From the NCBI GenBank assembly GCA_020912385.1, contig CP087218.1, positions 930,001 to 994,000 of the forward strand: a DNA stretch of 64,000 nucleotides. Reading direction: 5' to 3'. Below are positions 3,277 to 59,592 of the stretch, piece after piece. Below the pieces are notes generated by a model that saw only the letters and a program-made list of their open reading frames with translations, searched no databases and was not told the origin of the DNA. The first letter of the stretch is position 1; every line of letters starts with the position of its first letter. This DNA comes from Neofusicoccum parvum (lineage: Eukaryota; Ascomycota; Dothideomycetes; Botryosphaeriales; Botryosphaeriaceae). The position numbers and the translations under genes are program-made.

Positions 3277-3396
3277 CATGGGTAGTTGAAGAATTCGTCC
3301 GGACGCAAGCGCGGAGCGAAAGGAATACTAAATCCATTCGGAGGGATGCTGCAAGCGCCCACGTGTGGAGTCGTTTCTAACAATTTCCGAACCGAT
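3277..3396 (-). mobile_element. MITE-like foldback element, copy A (left end lost)
   Basis: The left arm is GGTAGTTGAAGAATTCGTCC (3281-3300) and the right arm carries CATTCGGAGGGATGCTGC, the degenerate complement. The arm continues outward as CCCACGTGTGGAGT and then CCGAACCGAT, which also ends copy D at 37456-37464. The loop matches copies C and E when read on the minus strand, so the copy is inserted in reverse. The outer left arm cannot be found, so the copy is truncated on that side. Confidence 0.7.
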
Positions 3397-4673
3397 AGGG
3401 TAGAATGCAGGCAATAAAAGCCGCCGAATCACCAACGGTACGTGCTAGACATCATCTGCGTAGTAGCGAGGAACGTAGAAAGTTGAGATAATTGGCAGGG
3501 GAGTATGGCTAGAGGCGATTAGTGGCAGCTAAGGGAGCTCGGCAGTTGGTTCACGCCGGAGATGGAAGAGTCCCACGGTGCGGCCGCCGACACCCGGAAC
3601 GAGTAGCACGATAATGGAAAAGGCCAACACAGGAAGCTCGTAGGGGTACTAACGGCCGTACCGTGAAGTAGTATATAGAGAATGACGAGACTTGCAAAAA
3701 TGAGATACATAGAAAGTGGAGCAGACGGGAGTAAAGAGAGGAGAGTCGCTCTCCATCACCCAGAAAGCGGGCGGATGGTGTATATCCCTTCAAAGCGGCA
3801 GAGGTAGCAGCAGCAGCAGCAGCATCCTATCCACCATGCCAGCCGCCGTCTTTCTCCAGCCGTGCATACCCGCTGCCTGTACCAGCGCAAAGGCCGCCTT
3901 TGCCGGTCTCCGCAATCACACGTATCAGTGCCGCAGGCCAGAACGGCCTTCCTCACATCTCCACCGCCAGCCAGCCAACCAGCTCTCTCAGGCCCACACA
4001 GCCCCTCAATCTCTAGCCGGTGCGCTAACGCTACCTCGCGGATGCAGACCTACAATCTGCATCCCGGTCTCTCTCAGAAAGCGCAAAGCGGCCGGAGGAA
4101 ATGACTCAAGGAGCAGAGCAAACGGTAGCCGGCGTTGAGGCGGGCAAAGGGAATGTGAGGCGCGCATCTGGCCTGGGTCTCTATACGAGGGGTTGGCGGG
4201 CAGCTGCAGTAGCACCTTGTGTACGGCGCCAGGTGGGGTGGACGAGGGAACAGGCGCGTTGCTCTGTGCGTCGCCGAAGACGCTGTGGCCAGTGTGCGGC
4301 GGCCAGCGCTGCCATTGGCCAGCGGAGCGGAGGGCCTGTCCGGCGCTAAGCTTCTCCGCAGCACCTCAGCTCATCCTCCACGTCGCACAACATCGTCAAC
4401 ATCACCACCCAGCACAAAGCCATCGAACATTCATCGTTATCCTGCCTTAGTTCGTAGCTGATTCGGTCCAAAGAATCGTGGCTAAAGTCTGTACTACGAA
4501 AGGAAACTTGTGGTGCCTCCTCAACGTCTGCCGCTACAGACCGTGTGAAATCATGAGAAAGGCCCGGAGAGATGAACATGGACAGAGAATGAAAGAAACC
4601 GCCATGCTAGAAGATAGCACTGATCCTCCCGCAAGTGATGAGCATGCAAAGCCTCAATGCTTCGGCCCCGCCT
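3397..4673. other. intergenic between repeat copy A and the CAP gene
   Basis: No gene is recognised. An (AGC)6 microsatellite lies at 3806-3823. The 4.0-4.35 kb part is GC-rich with overlapping spurious frames on both strands. The final 300 bases probably include the 3' UTR of the CAP gene. Confidence 0.55.
3806..3823. repeat. (AGC)6 microsatellite
   Basis: Six perfect AGC units in intergenic DNA. Confidence 0.9.
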
Positions 4674-5838
4674 TTACACGATGACCGGCGGCCTGTTCTG
4701 CGGCTGGCCGACGTTCTGCGCATAAGCTCCCAGCACGTTGCCTATTTCACCCGTTAGTACCGAATCTCTCTGTACATCTCCAAGAAACTGACCTGGCGTC
4801 TTGTAGTTGCACACCGTCAGCCAACTGTTGAAGTAAGTGTTCGAGATGCCGTTAGGGCAGGTTTGGTCGTTCGGACGGCATCCAGATACGCCAGGACAGA
4901 ATACCTCAGCACATCCGACCTCTTTCGAAGCGGCCCAGATGACCTGGGTGAAGTGGCTGTAGCGCTCCCAGGTTGAATCGCCATCCGCCATGTCCTTCGG
5001 AGTCGCCTGGCCATAGAAGTTGAAGAAGCTGAATTCCGAGTTGTACCAGCCATTGGTGATTCCCGCCTTAATGTCGCTCTTCTCGGTAGAGATCAAAAGG
5101 TTCTGACCGTAGTTGCCGCCGTCGAAATCCCTACATTCGCCGTCAGTTCGCTAATCCCAAGTCAAGGGCGCCTGTTGAGACTTACATGAAGTGACTGAAG
5201 TTGCAGTTGCTGGCCACCAATAGAGCACTGTGGAAGAGATCCTTCGACCACTTGATGTCAGGGGCGCTGTGGTTGCGACGATGAATGTTGTGAGAATCCA
5301 GGACGTCCTGACAAAACTGGGGATCGTCGGGGTGAAGGTCTTGACAGCTGTCGGCATTGGGAGCCTGGGCGACATACGACGGGGCGGGGGCCTGGACTTG
5401 CTTCGACTTGAGGGTGATGGTCACGAGAGAGCCAGTCTCAGCGAAGAGGCCAGGGCCCTCAGTCGGGGCAGTGAGGGCGGGCTTGGGGGTCTCGAAGCTG
5501 CTGGTGGAGGTGGTCGAAGCCGGATCGAAAGTCCAGGTACCAGTGACAGTACCCTTGCCGAGCGTGATGACGTGATGCTCCGAAATGGAGGGGAGAGGCG
5601 AGACAGGAAGAGGCTGCCACGACGAGTAGGGAGCATTGACCGAGGACGGAACGCGCTGGCCACCAACGGTGACGACCTGAGTGACGACGTGGACGTTGGG
5701 CTGCGGGACGGTGGACGCAGGAGCCTGGGCAGCAGTGACGGTGACAACCTGGACGGCGTTGACAGTGCGGGTGACGATGGCGGGAGCGGCCATGACTCCA
5801 GCAGCCAGACCGCCGACGAGCAAAGCCGAGAAGCGCAT
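4674..5838 (-). CDS. secreted CAP/PR-1 (SCP) domain protein
   Basis: I assemble three exons: 5838-5186, 5130-4793 and 4741-4674, giving 352 aa. A signal peptide (MRFSALLVGGLAAGVMAAPA) leads into a Thr/Val/Pro-rich linker of about 160 residues, probably cell-wall associated. The CAP domain covers about residues 183-345. It has the opening HNIHRR, the CAP signature HFTQVIW and the second signature VCNYKTPGN. Intron 1 (5131-5185) has a GTAAGT donor. Intron 2 (4742-4792) has GTCAGT, TACTAAC and TAG, and is 51 nt long without a stop, so it also reads through in frame. Removing it restores the canonical 'NYKTPGNVLG' ending. CAP proteins are extracellular and several fungal members (the Pry family) bind sterols or fatty acids. 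That role is inferred from the family only. Confidence 0.93.
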
Positions 5839-8311
5839 GTTGGCTTGGCGAAGAGTAGAATCTGAAAGGACTGAAGTTGCGTGTTAGGGTGAACTGGAAA
5901 AGAGCTTGGGCGAGGCGACTGATGCTGGCCAAGGAGCACACGCGCAGCGAGGTATTTATGCAGAGAAGGAGTGAATCAAGGGACCATAGAATGAGGCAAA
6001 AGGACGCAGAGGAGTAGGACGGTGGATTCAGTGAGGTAGGGCAGGGCAGCGGTGGTGTCGACTTACGTGGACGGCTTCTCAAGCGCAGCGAGAAAACCTA
6101 GGGTGTACGACCGAGGCGCACGAAGGAAGGAAGGAGCGAATGGAAGAAGAGAACGTCAGGCGAACCGGAAGTTCCAAGAGAGTGTGGTTGGGGAGGAAGA
6201 AGAAGAAGAAGAGAGGAGGAGCACGCGGTGCGCCAGAAGAAATAGGCGGCCAGGCGCGATGCTCGCTTAGCGACGACCCTTGGGCGTGCCTTCCTGTTTG
6301 GGCGGGCGCGAGAGGCACAGCGGCGGCACAGCAACAGCAGTGGGCGGCAAGCGGCGGGAGGGCGGCGGGCGGCGGGCGCTCCGCGGGGGCTCGAACAGCG
6401 ACGACACGAGACACGGCATCCGCGGCGACCATCCGGCAGAGCCTCCGGTTTATACATGCGCGTGCGGCGCCGACGGCTTGGGTCGACGCTGGGCTTGCGG
6501 ATCACTGCGAGGACGAAGCATGCGCTGCGTGTTTGGAGCCCCTTGGCAGCACCCACGCCCGCCGCCGCCGCGCGCTCGAGTAGGAGCACAACCTCCACTG
6601 GAGCGCACATGTTTGATTAAGCTTCTCCGGGGCGGGAGCGTCGTTTGCTGCTTGGGCGTGTCTTGCCGCAGGCGCGCGCGCGCTGGCGCCGGTGTCAGCA
6701 CCCGCTGCGCGCTGCGGATATCAACACCAGGGGGCCCGCTGCCCTACGGCTCCGCCGCGTGCGCTGATTGGCCTCGACGCCGCTCAGCCCTGGCTCCGTG
6801 TTGCCCTCATCTCGGACCGGCGCGCTGTTCCTGCAGCTGAGGGCCGTGCTCTGCATCCTTCGCTGGCCTGCGCTGCATCGCCCGCGGCCCCTCTACATTT
6901 TGCGCGGCTTCTTGACGCCACCTTGCACGGCCAGCAGCGCAGCGGCACAGACACGGCGGCAGCCTCGACCTCCGCAGCAGATCCGCCGGCGTCGACGCGG
7001 GCGCGGCGCACGTTGCACGCATGCGCGGCCCAGCGTGTTACTGGGGAGACGGGCAGAATGCACTTCATTCGCTGCGCTGGCGACTGTTCGCCAGGCGGCA
7101 CGACGGGATAAGCTCATGCGCGGCATCAGCATGACGTCGCAGCCGCGGCCATGCAAGGCGCTGTGCTGCGCAGAAGGACGCGTGATCTTGCTGTCCACGT
7201 CCCGGGCGTCGGCGGCGCAGAAGTGGCCTCTCACCTCTCACGAGGACGTGCCCTGGGCAGGCGACGCCGTTCCCTTGGATGCTGAAACAGCGCGGTCCCC
7301 GCATTCCTCATTGCCAGGACGCCAAACGCTGCCGCAGGTGAAACAGAAAGGGAAGGGCAGCCGTGGTTGCACAGACTTGCGACATCAACACCATTGGCCG
7401 CCCGCGCCGCTCCAACGCTGCTGACAGCACACAGCCGCGTCCGCGAAGCGCCTCAGACGTGCAGTACGAGCGTTTTCGTCGCATCCTCGCACCCGCCATG
7501 CGTGGCGGCCTGGAACAAGCAACGCGCTCTCGGCTGATCCGCTCTGGACTTATCGGCGACAGCAGCGCTGGCACTGCATTCCTCCCGCTGTCCTGACTGC
7601 CTCAGCCTTCCGCGCCATGCTCACTCGAACACTATACAGCCCGACAGCTCGTTTCACGGACCGTGGCCTCAACAGCCTGTTTGCAGACAAGACACGGGGC
7701 GGCATGGCTGCTACTGGCTGCCGGTGCAGATCCTTCACACTACATCGTGCGCTCTGAAAAGCTTGACATGGGCTTCGTAGATCCGGACCGCTCGATCTTG
7801 GCTGCTTTGCTGCGCAGAAATGGATGCTCGAGGCACCGCAACCCATGCCCGAGCCTCTCTGGTTCTATTGATTCCACGTGTTGTCCCGGCCGTGCTTAAT
7901 ATAACGAATTCTTGCATTATCGTCGCTACCAGAAACCCGAGTGTCGCCCCACAACACACAGACTGTTCACCCGCAGCCACTTCATCCGCAATTACGGGTA
8001 GCTGTGCAGCAATCTGGAACTGCTCCGGGCAGTTGGTTGCACAGGCCCCACCATACCGGCCAAACGTCTCAGAATCTAGCTAGCATTATCTCAAAGGAGA
8101 TTTGTCAGTCCACCAGCACCGCTTTCGAAACCCACGCTTAAGTAAGCTGAGAAGGGAAGTCGGCGAGGCACTCAGCTGCCTGAATCCATTGCGCCAAGGA
8201 ATGGAGCAAAGGAACCTTCATCATACATTTCGACGAGGCTCGTGACATTCCCCTGAGCATCTTGCATGAGAATTTGGATGGGCTTGCGTGAGGTGTTGCT
8301 TTCTGGGGGTA
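5839..8311. other. long GC-rich intergenic region upstream of the CAP gene
   Basis: About 2.5 kb with many overlapping frames on all strands (6.0-7.9 kb), rich in Arg, Ala and Pro with no recognisable domain. This is the usual shadow of high GC content. A purine-rich run (GAA)n lies near 6197-6212. I see no convincing gene. It may hold long UTRs or a non-coding RNA. Confidence 0.5.
5953..5959 (-). promoter_or_regulatory. TATA-like box of the CAP gene
   Basis: ATAAATA on the minus strand, 115 nt before the ATG at 5838. Confidence 0.45.
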
Positions 8312-8467
8312 CATGGTCGGTCCGCAAAGTTCTGCAACCTCACACATGGGCAGTTGAACCATTCGTCTAGACGCACCTTTGCAATGGAAGAAATACCGAC
8401 CCCATCTGCATGAATGACTCAATTGCCCACGAAGGCATGTACGCGTTGCAGTGCGATTCTAGCCGAC
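8312..8467 (-). mobile_element. MITE-like foldback element, copy B
   Basis: The left arm runs from GGTCGGTCCGCAAAGT through TTCTGCAAC to GGGCAGTTGAACCATTCGTC. The right arm mirrors it with GCATGAATGACTCAATTGCC, then CGTTGCAGTGCG and ending GCCGAC. TA dinucleotides abut both ends (8310-8311 and 8468-8469). The loop aligns with copies C and E when read on the minus strand. It is intergenic, on the 3' side of the sacsin-like gene. Confidence 0.8.
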
Positions 8468-9992
8468 TACGCAGGAGGCTCGGCTGTGAGATATTCGACA
8501 ACGCGGGAAGCCGTGGCCTCCACATTTTAGAGCGCAACAGTATCATTCGTGCTCGCACTCGCTTTCAGGGTCCTTCGTGAGCGGAGGCAAAGAGAGTGCC
8601 TATGTGTCTTGCGCTTTTTTTTTTTTTTTTCAAGTGCGGTCCTGCGCCCTGAAGACTTGACTTATGTAGCCCCTGAAAGAAGGCATCGAAAGTGACTACC
8701 CATGAAGAGTTGAGTGAACAACAAGAAACGCTCCATACTAAGCATCGCCCCATAGTCAGCATTCAGCGAGAGCTTTTCGGTAGCGCCATCCTTCACCACG
8801 CCGATGACAGATGCGGTCAGACGTACCTGCGTCAGCGGCATCTCCCGCAAGCACACTTTCTTGTGTGACCAGCCCGCTTACTCAGGCAGAACGATCAAGA
8901 TCTCGACCGCACCTCAGCCATCATGTGAGCGCCTTTCACCACTACAGCGTCCTTGGACCGTTACATAGCCGTAAGCTAACAAGGCCCCAAAACATCAACA
9001 TAATGCGCATATCAGGCACCGTGCCTCGCCTTCCTACCCACCATCCCCCATCTTTCCAAGCCTTTGCACCCTTCCGTCCAGAAAAGATCCCCTTCGCATC
9101 CACCTCGCTACACTACCGCCTCGGAGACTCCGTAGATCGCGGCGTTCGCAACCCACACAACCACTCTTCCTCGCCAGCAGACAAAGAACCCCTCACCCAC
9201 CACCATCGCACGAGCCCCCCCTCCCTCGCCGCTGCTGCTGTCTCACCAAGCCGCCCACCACACATAGCTCACGTACGAGCCTTTCCCACCCCCACACCAG
9301 CTTCTGTCCCACCACCACGCCCTCATCCCGCGCGGTCACATGGAAACCCTCAGACAAGGCCTGCCTGCCTGGAGATCCAGCCTCCTCCAGACACCAACGT
9401 GACAGGACGCCACGGCCTGCCATGTGGCACAGCTGCCGTCTGACGGTCTATGCGGCGGCGCGGTGCTGTGGCGCACGGCGCAGGACGTAAGGCGCAATGG
9501 CGGTAACGGCGAGGGCTCGAAAGTCTGGGCCTTGGGATGCGTGAATGTTTACGTATGGGTTTGACGCAACGTTCAGACCAGTTTCACATAAGGGAGCTGG
9601 TTGGGTTTCGACTTTGAAGAAAAACGTTGTCTCTGTCTACCTAGACTCTGCTTGCCTTGCCGTAACATCTTCTCTCTGCCTGGTGTACTGTACAGCGTAT
9701 CCTTCGTCTAATCTAATGCACCTACTAGCAATGCAAAACGCAGAAAAGCTACGAGGGAAACTCGACTATGCAAGAGCAAAACGCAATCTGCTTGAACAAA
9801 AATGAAGGCCAACCCAAGCGAAAGTAGCGAAGAGGAGAGAAACGGAGGAGTCTACAAATATATGCGAGCAGGAACAGCCAGGACCAGAATTACAGCCCAT
9901 CATCGCCACATGTTCATCTACATCATCCCGCTGCCTCTAAACGCCATACCAAACCGTCCAACCGCGTCCCGCTCCTCCCTTTCACCACACAC
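8468..9992. other. intergenic 3' of the sacsin-like gene
   Basis: A T16 homopolymer lies at 8615-8630. A proline/histidine-rich frame at 8811-9443 has low complexity and no recognised domain, so I do not call it. The last few hundred bases should be the 3' UTR of the minus-strand gene. Confidence 0.5.
8615..8630. repeat. T16 homopolymer
   Basis: Sixteen consecutive T in intergenic DNA. Confidence 0.9.
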
Positions 9993-12900
9993 CTACAGCC
10001 CCGCCACCAGCCTCGCCATCTGCGGGAATGTTGCCTTCACAAAGCTCCCCTCGTAAAACACATGCGCGGCGGAGTGTTCCTGCGACAGGTTATGCGCAAT
10101 CTCATGGCAAAACGCCTCCCACCAGAAGATATGCGCGTCGCCCACCTTGACCTTTGCCGGGCCCTCGAGATCCGCCTTATGCAGAGTCAAGAAATAGTGA
10201 TAGTTAAAGAACAGCGCGCCGCCCTGGTTGAACGCAATCGTGCTGCTTGTCTCCTCGTAAAATATGTTGAGGACACCGTCGCGGCTGTTGAAATTGAAGA
10301 CGACGCTGCCAACACACGCCAGCAAGGCGGCGAAGGCATCAATTCCGCTGAGGAACGCCGGATCGGAAGTAGGGATGGGCCGGACCGGGTGGTTGGTTAG
10401 GTAGATGGTTATGCCCGTCTGCGAGTGCGCAAACCAGCGCGACAGGTCTTTGCTGGTGCTGCTGTCACAGTACGAGCCACGCGCCTCGTCGATGTCGCGC
10501 GTCTTCGCAGCCGATTGGACGTGCGGCGAGTTGTGAGCGCGACATTTTTGGAGGGCGGTGTCGAGGTTGGCGCGGATGTCGGTGGACATGTTGTTCGGGT
10601 CGCTGGGGGCGGGGAGGCCATCGCTGGCATTGTTGCGAGTGTTGGTGTTGCTGCCACTGGGAGTACTGGCGCGGTTGCCGCCAGCCGTGGTGAGGTTCTC
10701 GAAGGCTTTCGTGAAGTTGGACATGAACTTGCTGCGGCGATTATTGGCTACTGTGTCAGTACTGAGCCGTCGCTCCAACTGGTTTTCCGTCTTCTCGTCG
10801 TGATCAGGGGAGTCGAAGGCGCCTGGCATCTTCGGCATCGGCTTATCAGGTGTCTTCGGAGGTGCTTGGTTGGCAGCAGCCTCGATTTGTTGAGGTTGAT
10901 AAGCCGGTGGAGGCTGCTCTGGCGACTTTGGTTCTGGAGGCGCATTTGCAATCCTCTGCTGTTCTTCCTCAGCAAGCCTGGCCTGCTCGAGAACCCTTTG
11001 CCTTTCTTTGCGGGCGAGAATCCGATGCACATCATAGCCCTTGTCGCGCAAGCGCCGCAAGCTATTACCCAGAATAGTCTCCAGAATGAGAACCTCGTGC
11101 TTCGGATTCTGGCGTCTGAGAAGCAACGGCACAAGCTCACGACTAACTTCGTAGAAATCGAAATCCGGCCGAACAAACAAAGTCGTAGACGTTTGAAATC
11201 TCGACTTGACTTTCAGCAGACCAGCACTTGTCTTCAAGGCCACGGCTCGCTGTCCTGGTAATTGAAGACGATGAGTGAGAGATGAGACGAGCTTGACGTC
11301 CAAAGTCTGTTCCAGCCAGCGTGTGTCATGAAGTATCTGGTCCTTGTTATATGATACGAGGAAAATCGGTGTCCGTTCCACGATAAGCGTCTTCAGAGCA
11401 GCTGCCTGTTGCTCTCCACCCGGAATCGGGTTGCCTGGTATCTTCTCCACGTGAACGCGGTCACTGAGCTTCTCAGCACCAAGATGCATATAGAATTGCT
11501 CGAGGACTTCGTCTTCCGGAGCGACCAGGAGGGAGTGCCTGAAGACGCCGTAGTATTGGACGTTGTCTCGGATGACGATCTGCGTAGCGGCGGCACTAAC
11601 GAGGACTTGCTGGATCGCTGGGTCATCAACGTCATCATCATCCTGGTCAAGGAGGTGCTTCTCTTTCTCTTCAGCTGCTTTGCCCTCTTGCTTCTCATCT
11701 TTGAAAGCCAGCAATACTGGCTTATTTTTGAAAGCTGCCCAGACGCTCTTGTCCGACTTGAGCTCCCTTTCTTCCACCGCAAACTGTCTGAGCAAGTCCA
11801 TGTACTTGGATGCCTGTAGCTCCTGCAGAACCTTGGATGGATTCTCAATGACCATGCGAGCAAGCTCCAAGATTGTGGGCTGGTCCTTGGCGCCGACAGT
11901 CTTCAAGAAAGCATTCGCGATGCTTCCAAAGTCGACAAAGTTCAGAATCTTGCCGAACTCTTTACTCTCGCCGACAAAACAGGTTCGAGGTGGGATGTGG
12001 CGAACTCGCTTAGAATCTTGCGAGCTCACAAGTGGCACGATAGGAGAATTCCCAAGCTCTTGAGCGATGAAATGCTGGCCTTGAATATCTGCAATTCTTC
12101 CTGCCATGTACCCGAAGTATAGTGCAGCATCCTGCTTACTCTTCGGAGGAGACCTGATGAGATTTCTGGCGCATTCATCGATGGGAGGATCGCGACGAAC
12201 GCCAAATACAGCTGCATGCGGCTGTATGTCGCGCCGAAGAATGTTGTATCCAAAGATAGAAGCGTCAGAGTTCGTGACACAGTCACTTGCACGGACCAAG
12301 AAAGGGAATTGAATTCCCTCAACTGGTAAAATTTCCTTATCTGCAAGTGCCGATGCTGGAATGTTTTGCCACATGGCACGGTTAGACAAAAAGTACAGCA
12401 TGACTGTCTCATAGTGCTGCGCGTCGTTGATCTTTGCCGCATATGACATCATGTTGACAATCTCGGTCCAGTTGGGAGACTTGCGCAGACCTAACTCGCG
12501 GAGAAACTTGGCCTTTGGGTCAAGGGTTTTGTACTCAGCATTGGATCGCCACTTGATCACAGGAAGACCAAGTGTCTTGTTGTCTTTGCTAGGTTCGTAG
12601 ATTTGCTGAAGCTTGTATTGTTTCTTCGCATCCCCACGGAATCCGGGATAATCCTCGACAGGCCAGATCTGTTTGTCGGCAAGAATAGTGCGGTCTTTGG
12701 CGGGTATAGAATCTCTAACATCTGCCAAGTATTCAATGAGATCCATGTGACTCCATTTCGGCTGATTTTCCTGAGTAGATTTGTTCGGAGCGGCCAGCAA
12801 GCGAGTAAAGACATAGTCCAGATCAATGGTCTGACGAAGTCCAAGCGCCTCAAGGAATTTTGGTTTCAGCCCAGGGACAATCAGGTTCGGAAGATCCTCG

Positions 12901-15300
12901 AACAACTTGACGTTGGGATGATACGTTTGCTGCGGAGTCTGCATGCCGCTCTTGGTAGGCATGACAGTGTGAGGCTGGAGAAGCTCAACCACCTCCGTTC
13001 GTTGATGAGCCCTCAGTTGATCCCACTGCTTAGAAATAACTTTGAGGACCTGCGTGGCAAATTCCGCGTCTTTCGTGAGTGATTTGGCGCCGTTTCGTTG
13101 ATTGGACTCCAGAAGAAAGCGAATCCATTCTTCGGCAGGAAGCTCTGACCACCCAAACCCCTCCAATTGGGCCCGAGTGAACTCTTTTGTGTATTTCAGC
13201 GGCATGACGGAATCGGGATACGGAAGCTCGGGAGGGTATTTGGCTGCGTTTAGATAGAAGCTGATGCTGCCAAGTGCGATGATAGACGAATCGGCAGTCA
13301 ACACAGCGGCCTGGAAGAGGCGTTTGAGATCTCCAGCATCGATGTGGTCGGAGTTTGACATCTGGGATGTGAACTTGAGAAACTCTCGCATCTCCTCCTC
13401 ATTGAGGGGTTTGTTCTCCAGACGCTGAACGATATCTTCGACAGTAAGATAGTACAGGATTCGTCGGTTCAAAAGCTTCTCTACGAAACTTCGGGCTTGT
13501 TCAATGAGCTGCTCGGGAACCATGGGAAGATCCTGAAGGAAACCCAGCTTCATGAGCGACACACGCACGCTCTGACAGGGCAGGACGCCATTCGTGGATA
13601 GCATATCAGCCTTCTTAGAAGCTCTCCAGAATCCCTCTTCCACACATCTTCCCACCACCCCAGATGGTGTGGACTCTTGAGAGGTCCACTGATTCAGTAG
13701 GTACACCGTGTCAGGCATCACCTTCGAAATGTGATCAGCAGAAGGCTTAGTAGCCTTAGCAACCGCCAACTCCTTTGAGAGTTTATCCTTGATCGCAATC
13801 ATGCCGCGATCGAATTCCATTCGACATGCAATGCCGGCAATGTCGAGCATAGCTTCATTCCAGGTGGAAACGTGGCGATTCGACAGGTCAATGCTTTCAC
13901 GTTCTACTGTCGGGATGAGAGAAGGCGCAAATATGTGACACTGGTAGCCAGTGGTTTGACCGGTCGGAAATCCGATGAAGACACGACCGTGTTTTGTTGG
14001 CAAAGCAGAGGCGAAGAGATCCGAAGCACGGTCTACGGTGAGGCCGGAGGTATCGGTCACGGAGCTCTCCCAATCGCTGTGCTGTGCAGTCAAGATGGCT
14101 AACCGTGTTTGTTGAGGAGGTGGCTTCTTGGTTGCTCGAAGGAGTTCGCTGGACAATATTCTTGGGACCTTGGTGTTGATGTTGACCGAGTTGATACGGA
14201 GAGCGATGGTTGCTTGTGAGACACTGGCCGCATCCTCTGCTACAGCCCTCTGCTTAGCTGCTGCCTTTTCCCTGGCGGCCTTTTGTTCTTGTTCTCTCTT
14301 GCTTGCCGTTCCGATATTGAATCTGGCAAAGAATCCTTTGAAGCTTGGTACAGCGGCCTGGGCCTCTTCAACTACTGGTTCCTGCGTCGGCTCTTGACGA
14401 TCCCAAGCTATGATGTTGGACCATTCTGCCTTGATGTTTGCTGTTTGGTGGGTAATCTCCCGGATCTCCATGATGCCCTTCTCGGACTTCCTTCCAATGT
14501 GGCTTGGGATTGAAGTTGGGGCAGCGGCCGAGGTCGTCTTGGTAAGGTCAAGAATCTTGAAGTTATCGACGTACAATTCAATGCTCTGCAATGCAAGGAA
14601 GGTGAGACTAGTGGTAAAGAACTTGGAAAGTTCAAAGAGGTCAGGCACTGGTGAAGGGGTCACGTCGCCGTTCTTGTCGGACGATTTCCGGTAGTCCAAG
14701 ATAAATCTGGTGCTGTCTGAGGCCTGCTCAGCGGGAAGAGTTGACGATTTAACGGCGAGGGTGTTGCCCTTCCAAAAGAAGGCCACTGTTGGAAGATCAG
14801 CGTTAGCGAGGAGAGGTAGGGCATGAAGGCAGTTGCAGGAACCTACTGGTCTTGTTGCCGGATATTACAAATGGTTCATCACATTCACTGAATACGGAAT
14901 AGAAGCCGACGCCAAAGGCACCGATCTTAGTCTCGTCAGGGTTGCCCTCTGCGATGCATCTCAGTCGCGACCAATCTGCATCAGTAAATGGCTTGCCGTT
15001 GTTGGCGACGTCCAAGCTCCGCAAGGTATGATTTTTGACAACATGCCTGAGCAGAACCCCCTGATCCTGGGTCTGTGGTAACGGCACGCGTACGGAGGGA
15101 TCGGTCTCAAGCCTAATAGTGGCCTTAGTCGCGCCAGCATCCGCAGCGTTCTGGACAAGCTCTCTCAGAGTCGTGAACTCGGCCGAGTAGCGCGCCAAGA
15201 CCTTGTCGATCAGGGCACGAGTGTTGACCGTGACTGTGTCATCTTGGCCCTCCTGCATCGTCAGCTCGCGCATGCGCGCGTAGTTGATAGAGCCGGCCAT
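9993..15300 (-). CDS. sacsin-like GHKL ATPase giant protein with C-terminal HExxH
   Basis: Two exons, 15300-14847 and 14785-9993, with a 61-nt intron (GTAGGT...CAACAG), give about 1748 aa. I start at MAGSINYARM; an in-frame ATG at 15357 would add 19 residues. The N-terminus carries GHKL/Hsp90-type ATP-binding motifs: the N-box TLRELVQNAADAGAT (about 44-58), a G1-like LDVANNGKPF (about 95) and the G2 glycine motif IGAFGVGFYSVFS (about 127). The long middle matches nothing I can name; fungal proteins of this layout carry DUF3684. A Pro/Gln/Lys-rich disordered linker (about 10.5-11.0 kb) precedes a conserved-looking C-terminus with HEIAH (10092-10106) and two further His. Sacsin-type proteins are thought to act as chaperone-like factors; the substrate is unknown. 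The gene is divergent from TRS120. Confidence 0.9.
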
Positions 15301-31700: not shown

Positions 31701-31858
31701 CGAGGTTGGCTCAGGAGTGTTGCAAAAAGTTCACACATGGGTAGTTGAAGCATTCATCCGGATGGGCTTGGTACTCATTTCACTGCACATTTGCGTCCGG
31801 ACGAGAACTTCGACTGTCAAAGCCATGCGTGTGTTGCAATACTTCCAAATCAACCACA
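31701..31858 (+). mobile_element. MITE-like foldback element, copy C
   Basis: It is bounded by TA at 31699-31700 and 31859-31860. The left arm reads CGAGGTTGGCTCAGGAGTG, then TTGCAA, then GGGTAGTTGAAGCATTCATC. The right arm reads GCGTCCGGACGAGAACTTCG, then GTGTTGCAATACTTCC and ending CAACCACA. The loop GGGCTTGGTACTCATTTCAC is shared with copy E. It lies 270 bp after the CSE1 stop, between two convergent genes. A (GCTGT)n-like tract precedes it. Confidence 0.88.
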
Positions 31859-31860
31859 TA

Positions 31861-37296: not shown

Positions 37297-37468
37297 TGAG
37301 GTCGGTTCGGAAAGTATTGCAACGCCTGCATACCGTCATGACCAGTTGAAGCGTCCGTCCGGACGGCTGTTCCTTTTCCTTTATTGCACATCCACGTCCA
37401 GACGAATGCTTCAGCTGCCCATACGTGAAGAGTTTGTTCTGGTTGCAATACTACCCGAACCGATCTCA
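37297..37468 (+). mobile_element. MITE-like foldback element, copy D (longest)
   Basis: 172 bp. The ends TGAGGTCGGTTCGG and CCGAACCGATCTCA are near-perfect complements. The arms continue as AAAGTATTGCAAC / GTTGCAATACT and CCAGTTGAAGCGTCCGTCCG / GACGAATGCTTCAGCTGCCC. TA follows the right end (37469-37470), and the left flank is CA, a one-base mismatch to a TA duplication. It lies 226 bp after the stop of the F-box gene. Confidence 0.88.
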
Positions 37469-51894: not shown

Positions 51895-52746
51895 TTTTTA
51901 CCGTTTTGTATCTCTTTTTCCTTTTGGATGACAACATCACTGGGTTTTTGGCCTATCTATGGCGAAGATTTCTTCTTAGACATGATACCTACGTTTAGAC
52001 GTTTTTCTCCGAGCCATACGCTCAGTACCTCTTTGATCGTACGCATACATCATCTGGAGCGTAGACGAATGACTACTGTTTTAGGAAGAGATCCCTTCCG
52101 TCTCCCTGCGAACACAGATTCAGTCCAGATGTCTTAAAGCTGAATAAGAGGTTAAATCATTCATCTACAGCAAGAACACTAATCCACGAAACCCCACCTC
52201 GACCACGAAAATCCAATCTCTCCAATAGCTCCACTCACCTTGAAAGGGAAAACTCCCCAGTTGCAACCAGTAGGCATGCGCAAACGCCACATCGCGCCAC
52301 ACGGCGAAGACAACCAGCACGTCCTATTTTCCTCCGTTCGAAAGAAAAAAGACGTGCAGCCGTCCCGAGGGCAAGAGGGGGTATTAAAAAAAAAAATTCC
52401 AACCAGTTTCGCTAAACCCGCAACGAGTAAAAATGACGCACATACAAACACCGAAAAGAGTAGCTCCCTTGCCATTCCAGAAACCTATGGACTTAATTCC
52501 GTCATCATCATCACCATGAGACGACGTGGTTGATCCATTTCCAAAAGCCCATAGCAGTCCCTTGTATCCCAAGAAGCTTCCTGTCCCGTAGTAGCAATAG
52601 CTCCAGTCCATCATGGATACCGTGAAAAAAGAGATCATGAGCTCCGTCCATCTCAGTGAAACGCCGCCGAGACGCAAGGAAAAAGGGAAACAACGAGAGC
52701 GAAAGAGAGAAGAGGCTGTTGATTTCCCCATCCCATCCCTCGCACC
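51895..52746. other. 3' flank of THEM6-like gene
   Basis: T-rich then mixed sequence, with an A9 run near 52385-52394. No gene is seen. Confidence 0.5.
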
Positions 52747-52748
52747 TA

Positions 52749-52902
52749 CGTGATTGGTTTGGGATGTGTTGCAACAACTTCGCACACGGGCAGCTGAAGT
52801 TTTCATCCGGATGCGTTTGGTACTCCTTCAACCACACGTTCGCGTCCGGACAAATGCTTCAACTGCCCATGAAAGGTTGCAAAACTTCCTGAGCCAATCA
52901 CG
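52749..52902 (+). mobile_element. MITE-like foldback element, copy E (best-preserved ends)
   Basis: TA flanks both ends (52747-52748 and 52903-52904). Including them, CCTACGTGATTGG at 52745 and CCAATCACGTAGG ending 52906 are perfect complements. The inner arms are GTGTTGCAAC / GGTTGCAAAAC and GGGCAGCTGAAGTTTTCATC / CCGGACAAATGCTTCAACTG. The loop GTTTGGTACTCCTTCAACC matches copy C. It lies between the convergent THEM6-like and Pns1-like genes. Confidence 0.9.
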
Positions 52903-53109
52903 TAGGAGCATGGGGGAGGGTGGGGGAAAATCAGCAACTCCCGAGAAAGAAATGATGACAAGAACTCCGCGTTCTGTTTGCAATCTATATCAGCATATCA
53001 AAAGTGGGAGCAATGAGAGAACTATGTCCGAGAAGGCTGCCGTGTCGCTGATGCCGAAAAAAAAGCAATGGAAAGCCGCTCAAGCTTGCGAAAGATGTCA
53101 AGCAACCCT

Positions 53110-55504
53110 TTACGCGTACCGTCTTGTCGAATCACCGAAGAGTAGGCCGGCGTCCTCGCAGTAATGGCTCCATCCAGTGCCCTGGGATCCCACTTCACTT
53201 CCCCAGCAAACGATCAACGCATCCAAGACGAATCCCATCACACCCTCAAACGCCCCGAGGATACCCCAGCCAATAGCTGCTGCGACCATACCAACGACAT
53301 ACGCGTAAAGACTACCCTGTCGTGTGGAGCCAGCGAGCTCGAGCGTCCGTGCTGTGTTGACCCAGCCACCGAAGCCGAGTGCCAGAGACATGACGAAACG
53401 TGTCGCGTGCAGCAGCAGCTTCGAAAGGCGGTACGGAACGAGCTCGTGACCAGAGGGCGATGAGAATGAACGCGGTGTCAAGGTTGTTGTGGGCGTCGAA
53501 TGCGAGACGAAGGACAATTGGCGGAGTCCATGAGCTGCACGTCGAAGCTCCATGGAGTGAATCGAGGCATAAGTAAGCGTAAGCGGATTGGTGAGCATGA
53601 CGGCCGAGGTAGGGATGAATTGATAGACGCAGAGGCTCACGAAGGCAGCGAAGCGTCGCGGAAGGACCATGAGGGGAAGTCGGAGTGCAATCGTGAGGAA
53701 AGTCGAAAGACAGATGGAACCGAACATGGGGCCAACGGCGTGCCAGAACGATGCCTCAGCAACTTGTCGGCTCGTTGGCTTTGGCTCTACCCTCCGGTGG
53801 AAGTACCACTGGCTGACCGTGGCTGAGGTCAGCGATCTTTGGATTCCTGCGATAACGGACGAGGTCCAAAGGTAGAACAGGATGTAGAAGACGCCAAGCC
53901 ACCAGGTACTGAGATCGATCACCCAGAGTGTCACTTTTCCATCGCGTCTTTTGATGTGTCCCTCGAGGAACAAGCGAGTGAAAAGACCGATCCACATCCA
54001 TGTCCACAAGACGGTCGTGGTAAGGACGGCGATTCCTACGAGAACCAGGGCTGGGCAATCCGTGAGGACTTTACTGGCCAGTTCGAGAATTCGGGTTGCC
54101 TTGTCGATCGATCGTCGGCCTTGATAAACCATGTAAATCCACAGAATAGCACAAACACCGGGCACGAACGATGCCCAACGCATGACTTTATCCTGGAGGG
54201 TTGTTTCTCCCTTCCCCTTGTAACTTGAAATGAAAGGGTACAAAAAGAAGGACACCAGAATAATGGGCACGCTTAGAGTTATAAGCTGCACCAACGGTCG
54301 TGCAAAATAAGCAAGACATGCTAGCCAAAGAGCAGCGACGATCATGGATACGAGAGTGTATACTGATAGAAGGTGGAATGATGAATGTAATGTCGAATAA
54401 ATGGTGTCGCCGAGCGGAAGCTTCTTATCGGGCGCCGAAGTGTGGACCCATACAAGGAAGGCTGTCCCCATGAACGAGGCGAACCAGATGAGGTACAGAT
54501 ATGACCAGAAGCTGTCATACCTCTCCTCTTGCTCCTCCGGAATGATAGTCAAGACCGTCTCTTGATCGGGGCTGGCCGGCCGTGGATTCTGCAGCAGAGT
54601 CTCTTCGTCTGTCTCCAGGGGGATCGGCAGAGTGTTGCGTAAAGGGTTCCGTGGAGGGTTGATGCCTGGTGTTCTTCGGAAATGCTGCGTTGGTGGTGGG
54701 TCGTTGTCATCGTCCGAGAAGTCTTCTTGGAGCTCGTCTGCGCTGCCCCTATCCGTCGAGGCCAGCTCTACATCGACGAGTTTGCCTTTTCCCTTGCTGC
54801 TGGGGGCGCTTGCCTCGGACGCACCGACGCTCCTTTCCCGACCATCGGCTTCCTGTATGGGTTGCACAGTGGGCTCTCGGCCTCTTACGGTCATCCTACT
54901 CCCCCTCCACGAGCTTCTAATCCCCCTACCGAACGCAGGCCCTTCGCTGTCGTCTTCGTCGCCGTGGCTGTTCTCCGACTTCGATGCGTGGTCCCGGTCG
55001 TCCATGTCGGAAGAATCGGTCAGATGACTCCCACCAAACTGACGGCGCGACTTCTGGAGGGCGTAAAAATCGGCAACCTCGCGCTCGTGCTCCAGGCCAT
55101 CGTCCTCTTCCCGAAAGTCGTCGGTGACGGAGTAGAACAGTGGGGCGGGGGCGGCAGAGGTGCGCGAGGCGAAGGGGAAGCGCGAGATTTGCGAGGCGCT
55201 GGGCCCGTAGGGGTTCGGCATATTTGGTCGCTGCAGGTACGATCGTGAGGTTTGGTAGCGGGAGGCGGCCTGGTTGGGCCCGCCGTGTCGACTGGGGCGG
55301 GATGGGTGTTGCGAAGGTTCAGCGTTCTCTTGCCCGCCGAGCAGACGCGACTGCGACTGCGCGAGGAAGCGCGAGGCATCTGTTTTGCGGGCGACAAGCA
55401 CATGTCAGTCACGCGAACGCGGTCGTGGGCAGGTGAGACAGCTGCGATCATCTGCCCGGAGCAGGCGGCGATAAGGGCCGCGGTGACCTACATTCGGAGA
55501 ACAT
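53110..55504 (-). CDS. PNS1: Pns1/CTL-family (choline-transporter-like) membrane protein
   Basis: Two exons, 55504-55492 (13 nt, MFSE plus one base) and 55379-53110, give 760 aa. The long frame has no ATG at its head. A GGCACCATG start 112 nt upstream, with GTAGGT donor and ACAG acceptor, yields MFSEYASRFLAQSQSRL. About 290 residues of Ser/Asp/Arg-rich disordered cytoplasmic tail precede about ten membrane segments. The first is FWSYLYLIWFASFMGTAFLV, and others include LVLVGIAVLTTTVLWTWMWI and VTLWVIDLSTWWLGVFYILF. The last third carries the CTL signature region (FWHAVGPMFGSICLSTFL). Despite the family name, choline transport by Pns1 is not established. Confidence 0.9.
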
Positions 55505-56309
55505 GGTGCCTTATGCACACGGGCGGCTGCTGGAGTGGCGCGGTGCAGCTGGCCGCGACGGACGGGAGGTCGAGTGCAGCCCGTGGGAGCGCTGGGGCGA
55601 GGTGAAGGCGGAGGGCGGCCGGCCGGTGAGTCGGTGAGTTCGGGTGGTACGCGCAGCAGCAGCAGTGAGGTCAAGCCCAGCTCCGATCCGGCCGGGGATC
55701 AGCTGGCTGGGGCGGTGACGTCGGGAGCTTGGGGGATGCGGAGCAGCGCAAGCAGGAACGCGGCGGACCGAGGGCGAGGGCGAGGGCGCGGAGAGCAGCG
55801 AGGACGCAGCAGGTCGCAGGCCAGAAGTGAGGCTCGCGGCGTCGGGGCCGGGACGAGGCGTGGAGCTGCAGCGGCTTGAAGGCGGCAGCGGCCTACTCGC
55901 CAGGCACCATCGGCGGTGGTGGGTGGAGCTCCAGCAACCCTTGACCCTCGCCGAAAACGTCATTCGCTGCCGGCCGCCGCAGATCCAGACAGAACCACCG
56001 CCGCGCGCCCTGTATACCAGCCTCCCCACGCCATCAAAGAGGTGCTGCCTCTGCCCACCCCGCCTGCTGCCTGTCCGCCGCGCCCGAGCCCGCGCGCCGC
56101 TTTGTCTGCGTCATCTCCGCTCCTCAGCCACATCCGGCGCTACCACCGTTGCCGTCAGTCGACGCAGGCCTCAGAGTCATCCGCCGGCCACCACCCGACT
56201 CCATCGCGAGACCACCCTGCTGAGAGCAGCGCGCGCCTCCTGCGCTCTCCTCCATCGCCCTCCGGTCGCGCACCCAGGCTCCGCCCCGCCTCGGGAGCAA
56301 CGGTCCCAA
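55505..56309. promoter_or_regulatory. divergent promoter, Pns1-like / Rab4-like
   Basis: 805 bp, GC-rich, no TATA box. Long overlapping frames in both directions are composition artefacts. Confidence 0.45.
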
Positions 56310-57259
56310 ATGGCGCATCCGTCGCAACCATGGTAAGCCCTCCGATATTGTTGAGCCGCATGGGGGCAAGACGGCTCACTCCTCCTCAAAGGAACTACAT
56401 TGCGAAGATAGTGTCTCTGGGCGACTCCGGATGCGGCAAATCTAGTGTACGATACAACAACCTTCCTGTTCACCTCTCCGCCAGAGCCGCCAGCTGATTT
56501 GCGCCCCGTCGCTTCGTCTAGCTAACAGTCCGGCTGTGCGAAGGCCGCTTCTCTCCGCATCACGACGTGACCATCGGCGTCGAGTTCGGCTCGCGCATCG
56601 TGCCCGTCGGCCCTCCGGCCTCGCTCGAGCTCGGAATCAACAATCCCAACGCCGGCGAGAGTGCGAAGGATGCCGCCGCCACGCAGGACCAGAAGCACAT
56701 GAAGCTGTCCATCTGGGACACTGCTGGCCAAGAGACCTACAAGAGCATCACCCGCAGCTACTTCCGTGGGGCCAGTGGCGCTTTGCTGGTCTTCGATATC
56801 TCGCGCCGCGCCACGTTCAACAGCGTTACGGAATGGCTGCACGACTTGCGCCAGATCGCCGAAGAGGGAATCGTGGTCATATTAGTCGGGAACAAGGCCG
56901 ATCTGGCCCCCTCATCAGTTGTCGCCTCTTCTGATGATTCGGATCATCCTCACGCCAACGCTGACAACAAACGCCAAGTAACGCGCGAGGAAGCCGAGGA
57001 ATGGTGTCGTGAGAACAAGGTCATGCAGTACGTCGAAACATCCGCGAAATCGGGTGAAAATGTCGAGCGGGCCTTCCTCGAGGTCGCCGAGCGCATATAC
57101 CAGAACATCGAGGCCGGGAAGTACGACTTGAACGACAGGAGATCGGGCGTCAAGGGTCCTAACGCGGGCGGCGGCGGCAATACCGCCAAGACTGTGAATC
57201 TGGGAATGAACGATGTTGCTGCGGCAAGGAGAGGGCAAACTGGTGGCGGATGCTGTTAA
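56310..57259 (+). CDS. Rab GTPase, Rab4/Rab14-like
   Basis: Three exons, 56310-56332, 56392-56446 and 56522-57259, give 271 aa. All G-motifs are present: P-loop GDSGCGKS, switch I TIGVEF, WDTAGQETYKSITRSYFRG, NKAD and ETSAKS. It ends in Gly-Gly-Gly-Cys-Cys for double geranylgeranylation. 'SITRSYFRGASGALLVFDI' groups it with Rab2/4/14. It is about 60 residues longer than usual. One insert (about residues 53-78, PPASLELGINNPNAG...) lies between switch I and the DTAGQ motif. Another, Ser/Asp/His-rich, follows NKAD. Rab4-type proteins act in early-endosome recycling; the role here is inferred. The upstream ATG at 56310 is supported by W-N-Y joining across the first intron. Confidence 0.9.
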
Positions 57260-57685
57260 TGTGACTGATGATTCGATGCCCCAGGTTACGAAGGTCGGCT
57301 CGGGCTGTATAATATGCAGGCATACCAGGGCGCGAGGCGTTTTCGAAGGGGAGTTACCTTTTTCTTGGGCTAGGACATACTTGTAAATGCGTAATACTTT
57401 CGCTTTCCGTCTTCATCTTCAATCTGAGGTTCATCATGATGGACTCCCGTATTCGATCCGTTCATTAGGGCGATCGAAGGCTGAAAGGAAGAGCGCTACG
57501 CTCTAAATCGCTTCCAAGTAGGTACGTATGATTGATTTGTCCATGAATGGTGGTTCTCTCATGGATTATCTTCCTTCTCGTAGGGGTCGTCTTGCCTTAT
57601 CGATCATTCTCGTCATATTTTGTTTCTCTTCTCACAAGTATTTCTTGCTATTCTCTTCATGCTTACTATCCCCAACCCTAATTTC
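57260..57685. other. 3' flank of Rab4-like gene
   Basis: T-rich after 57540, no gene seen. A TTGTAAATG-like polyadenylation context lies near 57380. Confidence 0.45.
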
Positions 57686-57775
57686 AGATGGGGAGTTGAA
57701 GCATTCATCTAGACGAAGAAGTTCAATGAACAAGTGATCTTCGCATCCGGATGAATGCTTCAACTCCGGACGCAC
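57686..57775 (+). mobile_element. MITE-like foldback element, copy F (core only)
   Basis: GGAGTTGAAGCATTCATC (57692-57709) is the exact complement of GATGAATGCTTCAACTCC (57750-57767). The 40-nt loop ends TCTTCGCATCC, as in the plus-oriented copies. The outer arms with the TTGCAA block are not recognisable, so this is a shortened or decayed copy between the convergent Rab4-like and CCCH-like genes. Confidence 0.85.
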
Positions 57776-58030
57776 GCAAGCATATCCTCTTATTGCGCTT
57801 CTTCGCGACAATATATATCAAATCAGCGAAGAGGCCAGTCAACAACACCCCACTGGTGCTGGTTGTTATCTACACAGCGGTTTATAGTAGTAGTGGAATG
57901 TTGGTCGCATTGCTAATTCGGTGGGGTATCTTAGAATACAGAACACAGAACCCCTCGCCGTCCTCTAATCATGATATCTGTTTACCTTTCTTTCTCTTTC
58001 TGCTTTTTCTATTATCTCCCAATCTTCCTT

Positions 58031-58990
58031 TCAGCCAGTGCGCGTGAGGCTCGAGAGAAATCGGTCGAACTCCTCCTCGCGACTCTCAATGAACAAGCGC
58101 ACTTTCTTGTCCATGTCCTCCTCATCAGCCCATTTCGTATCCTCCCAACCGCGGGTGCCGCCAAGACTACCCGGGCCCTCCACAACGTGACTGAATTGGC
58201 AATCCGGCTTCCGACAACCGCGGCGGCTGTCTGGCCCAATCACTCCATGTCTGCGATGGTACTTGCAATTGAACTGCTTCATGTGAAGCTGATAGGGAGT
58301 AGACGCCTGGATAACCGTAGTGGAATCCGAAAACTTGTCCACAACATATCCTGTGAACGTGTGGGACCACGGACACTCCTCAGCTGTCGACTTGCAGCCG
58401 CTTGCTTTCCACCCTAAGTATTGGGAGAGCCATAAATAGCAGGTCAGTGGCGGGTTCTGAAGATTAGGTGGAGGGCTGTCTTCGCTATGCTGCTGGCTTA
58501 GGTCCGATGCCGCTTCTGTTGACTGAGCTTGGGCAACGCCGGCCACAATGCCTTCTGCTTGGTCTGGAGACGGACTCCGCTGCCTTTTCTTAGCTAGACG
58601 CCGGATTGGCTGGTATTTCTGAGACTGTGCAAAGGTGTTGGTCGAATCAAAGGGTTTGCTACGACCTTGATGAAGACTTTGGTGTGCTGGGCTCTGGGAG
58701 GTTGGCGGGTGGGCAGGACGGTTGCCGGAGATCTGGGGATCGGACTGAATCTCCGGGACAGGCGCGCGTCTCCGAGGATTTGCAGGAACTTGCTGGTTCA
58801 GAGGTCCATTTCTCAGAAATCGAAAGTCCAAGGCGCTGATGTCGACGTGCGTGTCACCACGACTTGTTCGCCGTGCAAACGCCTCTGGTGCAGGCAGCAG
58901 GACGCGATTTCTCGGTAGTATAGAGCTTGATGTCTCGAACCAATCTCTCCTACTCTTCTTTGCAGGCCGTTCGCTCTCTGATCCGGGCAT
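58031..58990 (-). CDS. orphan protein with two wide CCCH-type zinc-finger-like motifs
   Basis: 319 aa, single exon, ATG at 58990. The N-terminal 170 residues are disordered, basic and Pro/Gln/Ser-rich, with nuclear-localisation-like RRLAKKRQR. Two Cys/His clusters follow: C184-x14-C199-x6-C206-x3-H210 (ending CPWSH) and C242-x16-C259-x4-C264-x3-H268 (ending CQFSH). The last part of each matches C-x4/6-C-x3-H of CCCH fingers, but the first spacer is about twice the normal 7-9. The C-terminus is acidic and helical. No family name is recognised. A nuclear RNA-binding role is a guess from motif type. Confidence 0.75.
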   Translation of the reverse strand: MPGSESERPAKKSRRDWFETSSSILPRNRVLLPAPEAFARRTSRGDTHVDISALDFRFLRNGPLNQQVPANPRRRAPVPEIQSDPQISGNRPAHPPTSQSPAHQSLHQGRSKPFDSTNTFAQSQKYQPIRRLAKKRQRSPSPDQAEGIVAGVAQAQSTEAASDLSQQHSEDSPPPNLQNPPLTCYLWLSQYLGWKASGCKSTAEECPWSHTFTGYVVDKFSDSTTVIQASTPYQLHMKQFNCKYHRRHGVIGPDSRRGCRKPDCQFSHVVEGPGSLGGTRGWEDTKWADEEDMDKKVRLFIESREEEFDRFLSSLTRTG

Positions 58991-59489
58991 GGTAGCGGGC
59001 GCTTTGGTGTCGTTCAGAGTATCTTAGTCGGATGTCTGGGCAGTGCAAACGGTCGCTGGGCGGATCACAACTTGCGACACCCATTCTCCGAGTCATCCTC
59101 TCTAGGAACACGTCTCGGTAGGATCTCGACATTGCAAAACAGGCAGGATAGGAATTATCTTCTTTGAACAAACCTTTCGTGCTGTTGTGCAGCAGCAGGA
59201 GCGCCAAGCGCTGGCGGAACGGCGGGGCGGAGCGATGCGGCGGACGGGGCGCGGCGGCAGGATTAGGCGATTGTGGGGCGGGAGTCGAGCAACGCGCGGC
59301 GGAGGTCCAACGTGGGGCAGCTGGCGGGCTTGCTCGCTATGCACGGACCAGCCCCCTCCAGGCCACCATTTCCAGCAGGCGCGAGGGCGCCATCAGCCGC
59401 CGGCAGGGCAGCGACCGCAGATGGAAACATTCCCCCCACGCCATGTTCTGGCATAATCTTGGGTATTCCGAATGTTCTGCACCAGCGGA
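58991..59489. other. divergent intergenic, CCCH-like / Rab11
   Basis: No gene is seen. A GC-rich block lies at 59.2-59.4 kb. Confidence 0.45.
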
Positions 59490-59592
59490 GACACGCACAC
59501 AGGGAGTTAAAGCATTTATGCAGATAGGAATAGCGCTTTGCTTGCTGCACTTCCGCATCCGGATGAATGCTTCAACCCCCCATGCGCGTGCA
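59490..59592 (+). mobile_element. MITE-like foldback element, copy G
   Basis: The left arm CAGGGAGTTAAAGCATTTATG and the right arm CATCCGGATGAATGCTTCAA then CCCCCCATG are imperfect complements. The loop TAGCGCTTTGCTTGCTGCAC aligns with copy D. Upstream TCCGAATGTTCTGCA may be the decayed outer left arm. It is the only copy in a divergent interval. Confidence 0.75.

What the first reader, a model, noticed from the sequence alone, without database searches (positions are those of the whole stretch)
3277..59592. A family of at least seven foldback (MITE-like) elements in one 64-kb window
Copies at 3277-3396, 8312-8467, 31701-31858, 37297-37468, 52749-52902, 57686-57775 and 59490-59592 share arm blocks (TTGCAA; GGGCAGTTGAAGCATTC; its complement GAATGCTTCAACTGCCC) around CATCCGGATG-like cores. 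Full copies are 154-172 bp with arms of about 60-70 bp and a loop of about 30 nt. Loops align between copies and give each an orientation (A and B minus; C, D, E and G plus). TA abuts both ends of B, C and E and one end of D, which fits a Tc1/mariner-type target. I know of no named family with these arms. A full-length autonomous partner is not in the window.
Basis: seen in the sequence. Interest (0 to 1): 0.85.

Follow-up and report, generated by a model that had tools for sequence, protein, structure and literature searches.

The report
Hairpin jumping-DNA family in a fungus
This is a large family of tiny hairpin-shaped jumping DNA pieces scattered through a fungal genome; the kind is ordinary, but copies sit beside tRNA genes more often than chance predicts, which would be a new habit for this kind of element if it holds.

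Summary
They belong to a dispersed family in a 44-Mb fungal genome (Botryosphaeriaceae, inferred from one protein). A 27-bp terminal repeat has 104 matches with up to 3 mismatches (reversed control 0); a 19-bp arm block has 871 (control 3). Nineteen repeat pairs span exactly 143 bp, a young subfamily; TA abuts 33 of its 38 ends, against about 5% at neighbouring offsets. These are MITEs with a TA target, as for Tc1/mariner elements. Most arm changes are one-sided, so the hairpin is not a conserved RNA. None of the DDE_1 or DDE_3 transposase hits is bounded by a listed terminal repeat. That test is post hoc, partial and not intergenic-matched, so targeting, shared intergenic space and survival bias are not separated. 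No empty site was available. Verdict: a new MITE family of a known kind, with a tRNA-gene bias worth testing.

The parts
   Evidence: profile hit at 1263-1424, 55.7 bits; ends extrapolated from the profile; not in the training set
1548..1620 (+). tRNA gene, about 120 bp downstream of the copy at 1260-1425
   Evidence: Rfam RF00005, 65.9 bits
3265..3396 (-). copy A, one end incomplete
   Evidence: profile 85.7 bits, model positions 6-138 of 167
8312..8471 (-). copy B, full length; TA on the left, CA on the right by homology
   Evidence: profile 119.6 bits; flanks
31701..31858 (+). copy C, full length, TA on both sides
   Evidence: profile 111.8 bits; flanks
37297..37468 (+). copy D, full length, TA on the right; used as the genome query
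   Evidence: profile 140 bits; flanks; genome search
52749..52902 (+). copy E, full length, TA on both sides
   Evidence: profile 121.5 bits; flanks
57685..57782 (-). copy F, inner arms only; arms of 18 bases fully complementary
   Evidence: profile 52 bits, model 31-129; inverted repeat I4
59466..59589 (+). copy G, one outer arm missing or eroded
   Evidence: profile 71.2 bits, model 10-131

Best explanation
The elements are non-autonomous cut-and-paste DNA transposons (MITEs) of one family. Shown: a body of mostly 143-172 bp made of two long arms (outer 27-bp terminal repeat, variable spacer, inner block GGGCAGTTGAAGCATTCATCCGGA) round a loop of about 30 nt, dispersed in hundreds of copies, flanked by TA, with old diverged members and a young 143-bp subfamily. 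Inferred: a transposase of the Tc1/mariner kind, acting in trans, binds the two terminal repeats, cuts the element out and puts it into a TA dinucleotide that is duplicated. The source transposon is lost from this assembly or has ends too different to recognise. Inferred, weaker: the 143-bp forms arose when one arm's shortened spacer was copied onto the other arm, giving nearly perfect hairpins that then amplified. No sign of a conserved RNA role.
For: 27-mer terminal repeat: 104 matches with up to 3 mismatches, reversed control 0; 19 pairs exactly 143 bp apart among the 100 listed (one search gives the same 19). 19-mer arm block: 871 matches, control 3. TA at 33 of 38 ends of the 19 143-bp copies against 15 of 304 at offsets 1-8 outward, and at 36 of 58 ends of 29 other full copies against 16 of 464. 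Loops align between copies and mostly score clearly better in one orientation (small margins in L008, L027, L070). Young copies differ from their consensus by 1-16 of 143 bases in 17 of 18, by 22 in one. Arms decay singly: 474 single-arm changes against 46 complementary double changes. Spacers: 16 of 19 143-bp copies carry the same short spacer on both arms and L019 another short one on both, while 117-bp L070 has the L019-like one on one arm only.
Against: No transposase with these ends: none of the 17 DDE_3 and 17 DDE_1 rows (three places are in both) is bounded by a listed terminal repeat (compared by eye; 4 of 104 and 42 of 142 places were not listed). One pair of repeats 1.6 kb apart proved to be two MITE copies. 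No empty site was seen, so duplication of TA is not shown. Arm copying has weak general support: in 19 young copies 4 complementary double changes against 2.0 expected (P 0.13), 2 of them transversions against 0.1 (P 0.0025); in 31 mostly older copies 46 against 34.5 (P 0.013) but transversion pairs show no excess (9 against 9.4, P 0.6).
Confidence: 0.92

Rival explanations
1. The family inserts preferentially beside tRNA genes, by recognition of the Pol III machinery or of the open chromatin there, in addition to being a TA-target MITE.
For: 6 of 49 tRNA genes have one of 68 repeat-bearing elements (merged from the 100 listed places) within 1 kb, 5 within 500 bp; random placement gives 0.17 and 0.10, and 0 of 2000 trials reached it. 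Moving the tRNA genes 3-60 kb locally gives 0.27 within 1 kb, 0 of 4000 trials reached 6. With that null tripled for intergenic bias P is 2e-4. Distances 121, 170, 267, 290, 488 and 502 bp, five upstream and one downstream (union list). Two further cases lie outside those lists: the window copy at 1260-1425 and L025. Young (two of six) and older copies take part.
Against: Post hoc: tRNA genes were looked at because of the one in the window. tRNA sampling is partial (63 of 860 candidates scored). In the arm-block list (78 elements from 100 of 871 places) only 2 of 49 are within 1 kb (0.18 expected, P 0.012; P 0.10 with the null tripled), and both elements are also in the first list. The null is not intergenic-matched. 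An 11-base B-box word meant as a second tRNA set gave no information. Distances are broad. The Ras control counts listed copies only: the unlisted window copies F and G lie about 0.6-0.7 kb from two Ras places.
Confidence: 0.45
2. The tRNA bias is survival or shared intergenic space, not targeting: insertions land anywhere open and persist where they do no harm.
For: The eight window copies lie outside the seven long ORFs with a Pfam match; two snoRNA genes also lie about 1 kb from copies (L022, L026); older copies are among the tRNA neighbours.
Against: Listed copies lie within 2 kb of 0 of 30 5S genes and 0 of 29 Ras places, though about 0.1-0.4 would be expected there by chance (at most 0.42), so this says little beyond excluding a rate as high as at tRNA genes; two of the six neighbours are young 143-bp copies.
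Confidence: 0.4
3. The hairpins are a conserved RNA or DNA structure with a host function.
For: Strong predicted folds of the full copies and placing outside the recognised genes.
Against: Single-arm changes outnumber complementary ones about ten to one; complementary transversions are at the shuffled level; no Rfam family at the copies.
Confidence: 0.03
4. Independent chance hairpins or simple repeats.
For: None found.
Against: 0 profile hits in the Markov null; 0 and 3 matches for the reversed patterns.
Confidence: 0.01

Closest known systems
Stowaway-type and other Tc1/mariner-derived MITEs (general kind)
   Same: Short, no coding capacity, terminal inverted repeats, TA at the ends
   Different: Terminus differs from the Stowaway one that I recall; arms reach nearly to the centre; no mobilising element found
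mimp of Fusarium oxysporum and Vader of Aspergillus niger (recalled, from no call)
   Same: Fungal MITEs with a TA target, as I recall
   Different: The terminal repeats that I recall are unlike CGAGGTCGGTTCGG; not compared by any tool
MITEs of Mycosphaerella graminicola (PMC4522978, passages) and Cochliobolus heterostrophus (PMC4112212, passages)
   Same: Dothideomycete MITEs; in the first, MITEs are more prevalent in gene-rich regions; in the second, Tc1-Mariner elements with lengths of 27-70 bp (read as terminal repeats from a cut passage) flanked by TA
   Different: Other hosts; 'tRNA' does not occur in the first paper's main text and once in the second's (passage not shown); sequences not compared
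tRNA-gene-directed elements: Ty1/Ty3 and dictyostelid retrotransposons (PMC5911963, PMC5006619, PMC5633606, passages), Dada DNA transposons (PMC8869645, abstract)
   Same: Insertion next to or in tRNA genes
   Different: The first are retrotransposons, several at narrow offsets; Dada inserts inside the RNA genes. The cases here lie about 80-500 bp away, on either side, and are TA-flanked MITEs

Membership tests
MITE (general) | Short (<600 bp), without coding capacity | tested here: met
   Full copies mostly 143-172 bp, one of 259 and one of 117
MITE (general) | Terminal inverted repeats shared between copies | tested here: met
   27-bp repeat, 104 matches, control 0
MITE (general) | High copy number, dispersed | tested here: met
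   871 arm-block matches, control 3; 68 separate elements from the 100 listed terminal repeats
MITE (general) | Target-site duplication shown by an empty site | not testable with these tools
   No related genome held; joined flanks found no empty site in the DNA held
Tc1/mariner-derived MITE | TA at both ends | tested here: met
   15 of 19 young copies at both ends, 3 at one, 1 at none; 33 of 38 ends
Tc1/mariner-derived MITE | Autonomous element with the same ends and a DDE/D transposase | tested here: inconclusive
   None of 17 DDE_3 and 17 DDE_1 rows is bounded by a listed repeat, but lists 18 and 26 were capped, and short or diverged ends would be missed. It works like one; membership stays open
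Stowaway | CTCCCTC-type terminus (recalled) | tested here: not met
   Terminus is CGAGGTCGGTTCGG
tRNA-targeted transposon | Excess of insertions next to tRNA genes | tested here: inconclusive
   6 of 49 against 0.17-0.27, without an intergenic-matched control
tRNA-targeted transposon | Narrow distance window to the tRNA gene | tested here: not met
   121-502 bp, both sides

The most novel reading that the evidence does not exclude
A TA-target MITE family (hence its unseen transposase) is guided to the neighbourhood of tRNA genes, a strategy described for retrotransposons and for Dada transposons but not found by me for Tc1/mariner-type elements, and its newest wave began when one arm was rewritten from the other into a near-perfect palindrome.
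Probability: 0.25. Interest if true: 0.65.

Novelty: new member of a known kind. Interest (0 to 1): 0.42.

Why it matters
The family has an estimated several hundred to a few thousand copies in gene-rich DNA of a fungal family for which the listings of three searches showed no MITE description, and two genome papers on that family do not contain the word in their main text (passages). If the tRNA-gene bias is targeting, it would add cut-and-paste TA-target elements to those that use Pol III genes as safe havens, and old and young copies in one genome make targeting against survival testable.

Tried and rejected
Autonomous partner: searched DDE_3 and DDE_1 domains and terminal repeats of 27, 20, 14 and 11 bases. 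The only kb-scale pair that I noticed (C10:920016-921604) is two MITE copies. Other transposase families were not searched.

Arm co-evolution as a general rule, by conversion or RNA selection: not upheld. In one search double changes as such exceed the shuffles (81 against 63, P 0.002) but mutation hot spots shared by both arms can do that. Slid-pair controls gave 10-21 complementary pairs against 46, which is expected because the structure came from the same consensus.

Flank palindromes as a target rule: among copies with flanks only four reach 6 of 10 complementary bases beyond TA (L062 10, E 7, L024 6, L068 6); left as a curiosity.

Empty sites inside DNA already held: none. IMG/VR viral contigs hold no exact 24-base piece of the terminal repeat. 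An exact 11-base B-box word gave 11 places against 8 in the control, so no information.

Rows dropped: L001, L013 and L028 (same places as other loci) before the copy counts; L056 (259 bp, rearranged) from the 143-bp set; L019 from the substitution spectrum; L055 (one terminal repeat missing) from the full-length set; 48 Ras rows thinned by hand to 29 places; L050 was never scanned for RNA genes.
Full report
Setting. The window is C13:930001-994000 of a 43.99-Mb genome in 18 contigs. A Sae2/CtIP-like protein encoded in it is 59% identical to that of Lasiodiplodia theobromae and 55% to those of Diplodia corticola and a Macrophomina, so the host is taken as a member of the Botryosphaeriaceae; the genus is not settled. 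The window is gene-rich: of eight long ORFs tested, seven match Pfam families (DUF3684, Trs120, tuberin, Cse1, Sae2, arylsulfotransferase, choline transporter), and no copy overlaps these seven.

The observation. Direct reading and folding confirm hairpins at the seven places. A profile built from 32 seed copies (window copies A-E and G among them) finds eight copies in the window, the eighth at 1260-1425 beside a tRNA gene. It finds 5 copies at E<1e-6 and 6 at E<0.01 in 20 systematically placed 10-kb stretches not used for training (taken from contigs C1-C5 only), and none in a Markov-1 null. From 6 in 200 kb about 1,300 copies would be expected genome-wide, with a wide margin (roughly 500 to 2,900, Poisson, worked by hand). 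The arm block GAATGCTTCAACTGCCCAT has 871 matches with up to 3 mismatches against 3 for the reversed pattern.

Anatomy. Outer terminal repeat CGAGGTCGGTTCGGATAGTATTGCAAC, a spacer, the inner block, then a loop of about 30 nt that gives orientation. The genome search with copy D gave 54 rows: itself, 52 rows of 65-87% identity and one 26-base row of 96%; some places are listed on both strands. Most of these copies are thus old. The terminal repeat has 104 matches with up to 3 mismatches (control 0); among the 100 listed, 19 pairs span exactly 143 bp. Seventeen of the 19 were fetched and two were already held (L019, L026). Eighteen of them compared with their consensus differ by 1-16 bases in 17 cases and 22 in one. 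TA abuts both ends in 15 of 19, one end in 3 and none in 1; for 29 other full copies the numbers are 11, 14 and 4. For copies with eroded ends the boundaries were extrapolated from the profile. TA makes up 2.7% of dinucleotides in the sample.

Spacer types. Of the 29 full copies that are not 143 bp long, 13 carry spacer type T1 on the left arm (5 with T2, 4 with T3, 2 with T4 and 2 with an unclassed spacer on the right) and 6 carry T1 on the right; the rest are mixed or unclassed. Of the 19 143-bp copies, 16 carry the short spacer S on both arms, L019 another short one (S2) on both, one reads S2/S and one has an unclassed right spacer. L070 has S2 on one arm and the old T2 on the other. The simplest reading is that one arm was rewritten from the other, perhaps twice. 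General tests of arm-to-arm copying are weak (4 against 2.0, P 0.13, with 2 transversion pairs against 0.1, P 0.0025; 46 against 34.5, P 0.013, transversion pairs 9 against 9.4), so this stays an inference.

Not a conserved RNA. Across 31 aligned copies (the three main-type 143-bp copies L026, L061 and L062 included, the others left out), 474 pair cells are changed on one arm only and 81 on both, 46 of those complementarily. A selected hairpin would not look so.

Mutation pattern. In 18 young copies C-to-T changes (both strands) fall at 39 of 432 CpA and 22 of 396 CpG sites against 5 of 288 CpC and 5 of 234 CpT. This resembles repeat-induced point mutation, although the elements are far shorter than the 400 bp given for that process (PMC4522978, passages).

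Transposase. DDE_3 gave 17 rows and DDE_1 17, three places being in both. I compared their places by eye with the terminal repeats listed; none is bounded by them. The closest that I saw, C9:46466 against a DDE_3 row at C9:48563, has the repeat facing away. The lists show 100 of 104 and 100 of 142 places, so some were not seen.

tRNA genes. This question arose after the fact, from the tRNA gene in the window. Of 49 tRNA genes returned (63 of 860 candidates scored), 6 have one of 68 repeat-bearing elements within 1 kb and 5 within 500 bp; random placing gives 0.17 and 0.10 (0 of 2000 trials reach either). 5S genes (30 returned, 47 of 2343 candidates scored): 0 within 2 kb. Ras places (29, thinned by hand from the 48 rows): 0 within 2 kb. 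Chance expectations for these controls are only 0.1-0.4, so they exclude a rate as high as at tRNA genes rather than show a difference finely. The controls count listed copies only; the unlisted window copies F and G lie about 0.6 and 0.7 kb from two Ras places, as the unlisted copy at 1260-1425 lies by a tRNA gene. With local shifts of 3-60 kb the expectation is 0.27 within 1 kb (0 of 4000 reach 6); there a uniform tRNA length put one case just beyond 500 bp, giving 4 within 500 bp. Tripling that null leaves P 2e-4. The arm-block list (78 elements) gives 2 of 49 within 1 kb (P 0.012, or 0.10 with the null tripled), both elements being in the first list too. From the MITE side, 27 loci found with copy D hold 4 tRNA genes (L004, L009, L020, L025) against 1 in 190 kb of the sample (19 of 20 stretches scanned); three of the four repeat the cases above. 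Two snoRNA genes also occur near copies and one U2 gene in the sample. The association is therefore probable, its cause open.

Known kinds. By anatomy these are MITEs with a Tc1/mariner-type target. Papers seen in passages describe Tc1-Mariner elements with a TA duplication in one other Dothideomycete (PMC4112212) and MITEs in gene-rich regions of another (PMC4522978). tRNA-gene targeting is described for retrotransposons (PMC5911963, PMC5006619, PMC5633606, passages) and for Dada DNA transposons, which insert inside the RNA genes (PMC8869645, abstract). The listings showed no tRNA-gene preference for TA-target MITEs, as far as titles and abstract openings go; most subscription journals are not held.

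Verdict. The finding is right and its kind is ordinary: a new, large MITE family. The tRNA-gene bias raises it above routine.

Noticed in passing
L056 (C1:4223271-4223553): A 259-bp copy in which a 58-bp part of one arm is repeated in tandem three times.
   Followed up: no
L062 (C6:1780443-1780609): A young copy sits at the centre of a perfect inverted repeat of at least 10 bases on each side of TA, 170 bp from a tRNA gene.
   Followed up: partly
window 52723-52928: The complementarity of copy E continues 26 bases outside the element on both sides, TA included (arms of 53 nt, 75% complementary in all).
   Followed up: partly
143-bp copies (L026, L051-L069): C-to-T changes concentrate at CpA and CpG, like repeat-induced point mutation, although the elements are very short.
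   Followed up: partly
one search list, e.g. C1:3095189, C2:3165642; also window copy F: A recurring inner-block variant (CAACTCCCC in place of CAACTGCCC) suggests a further subfamily.
   Followed up: no
C2:23122 and 28712; C17:22837 and 28427: Two pairs of DDE_3 transposase rows with identical scores and identical spacing near the starts of two contigs, suggesting a shared subtelomeric block.
   Followed up: no
window 9993-14786: A 1597-aa ORF matching DUF3684 over nearly the whole profile, a family without known function.
   Followed up: no
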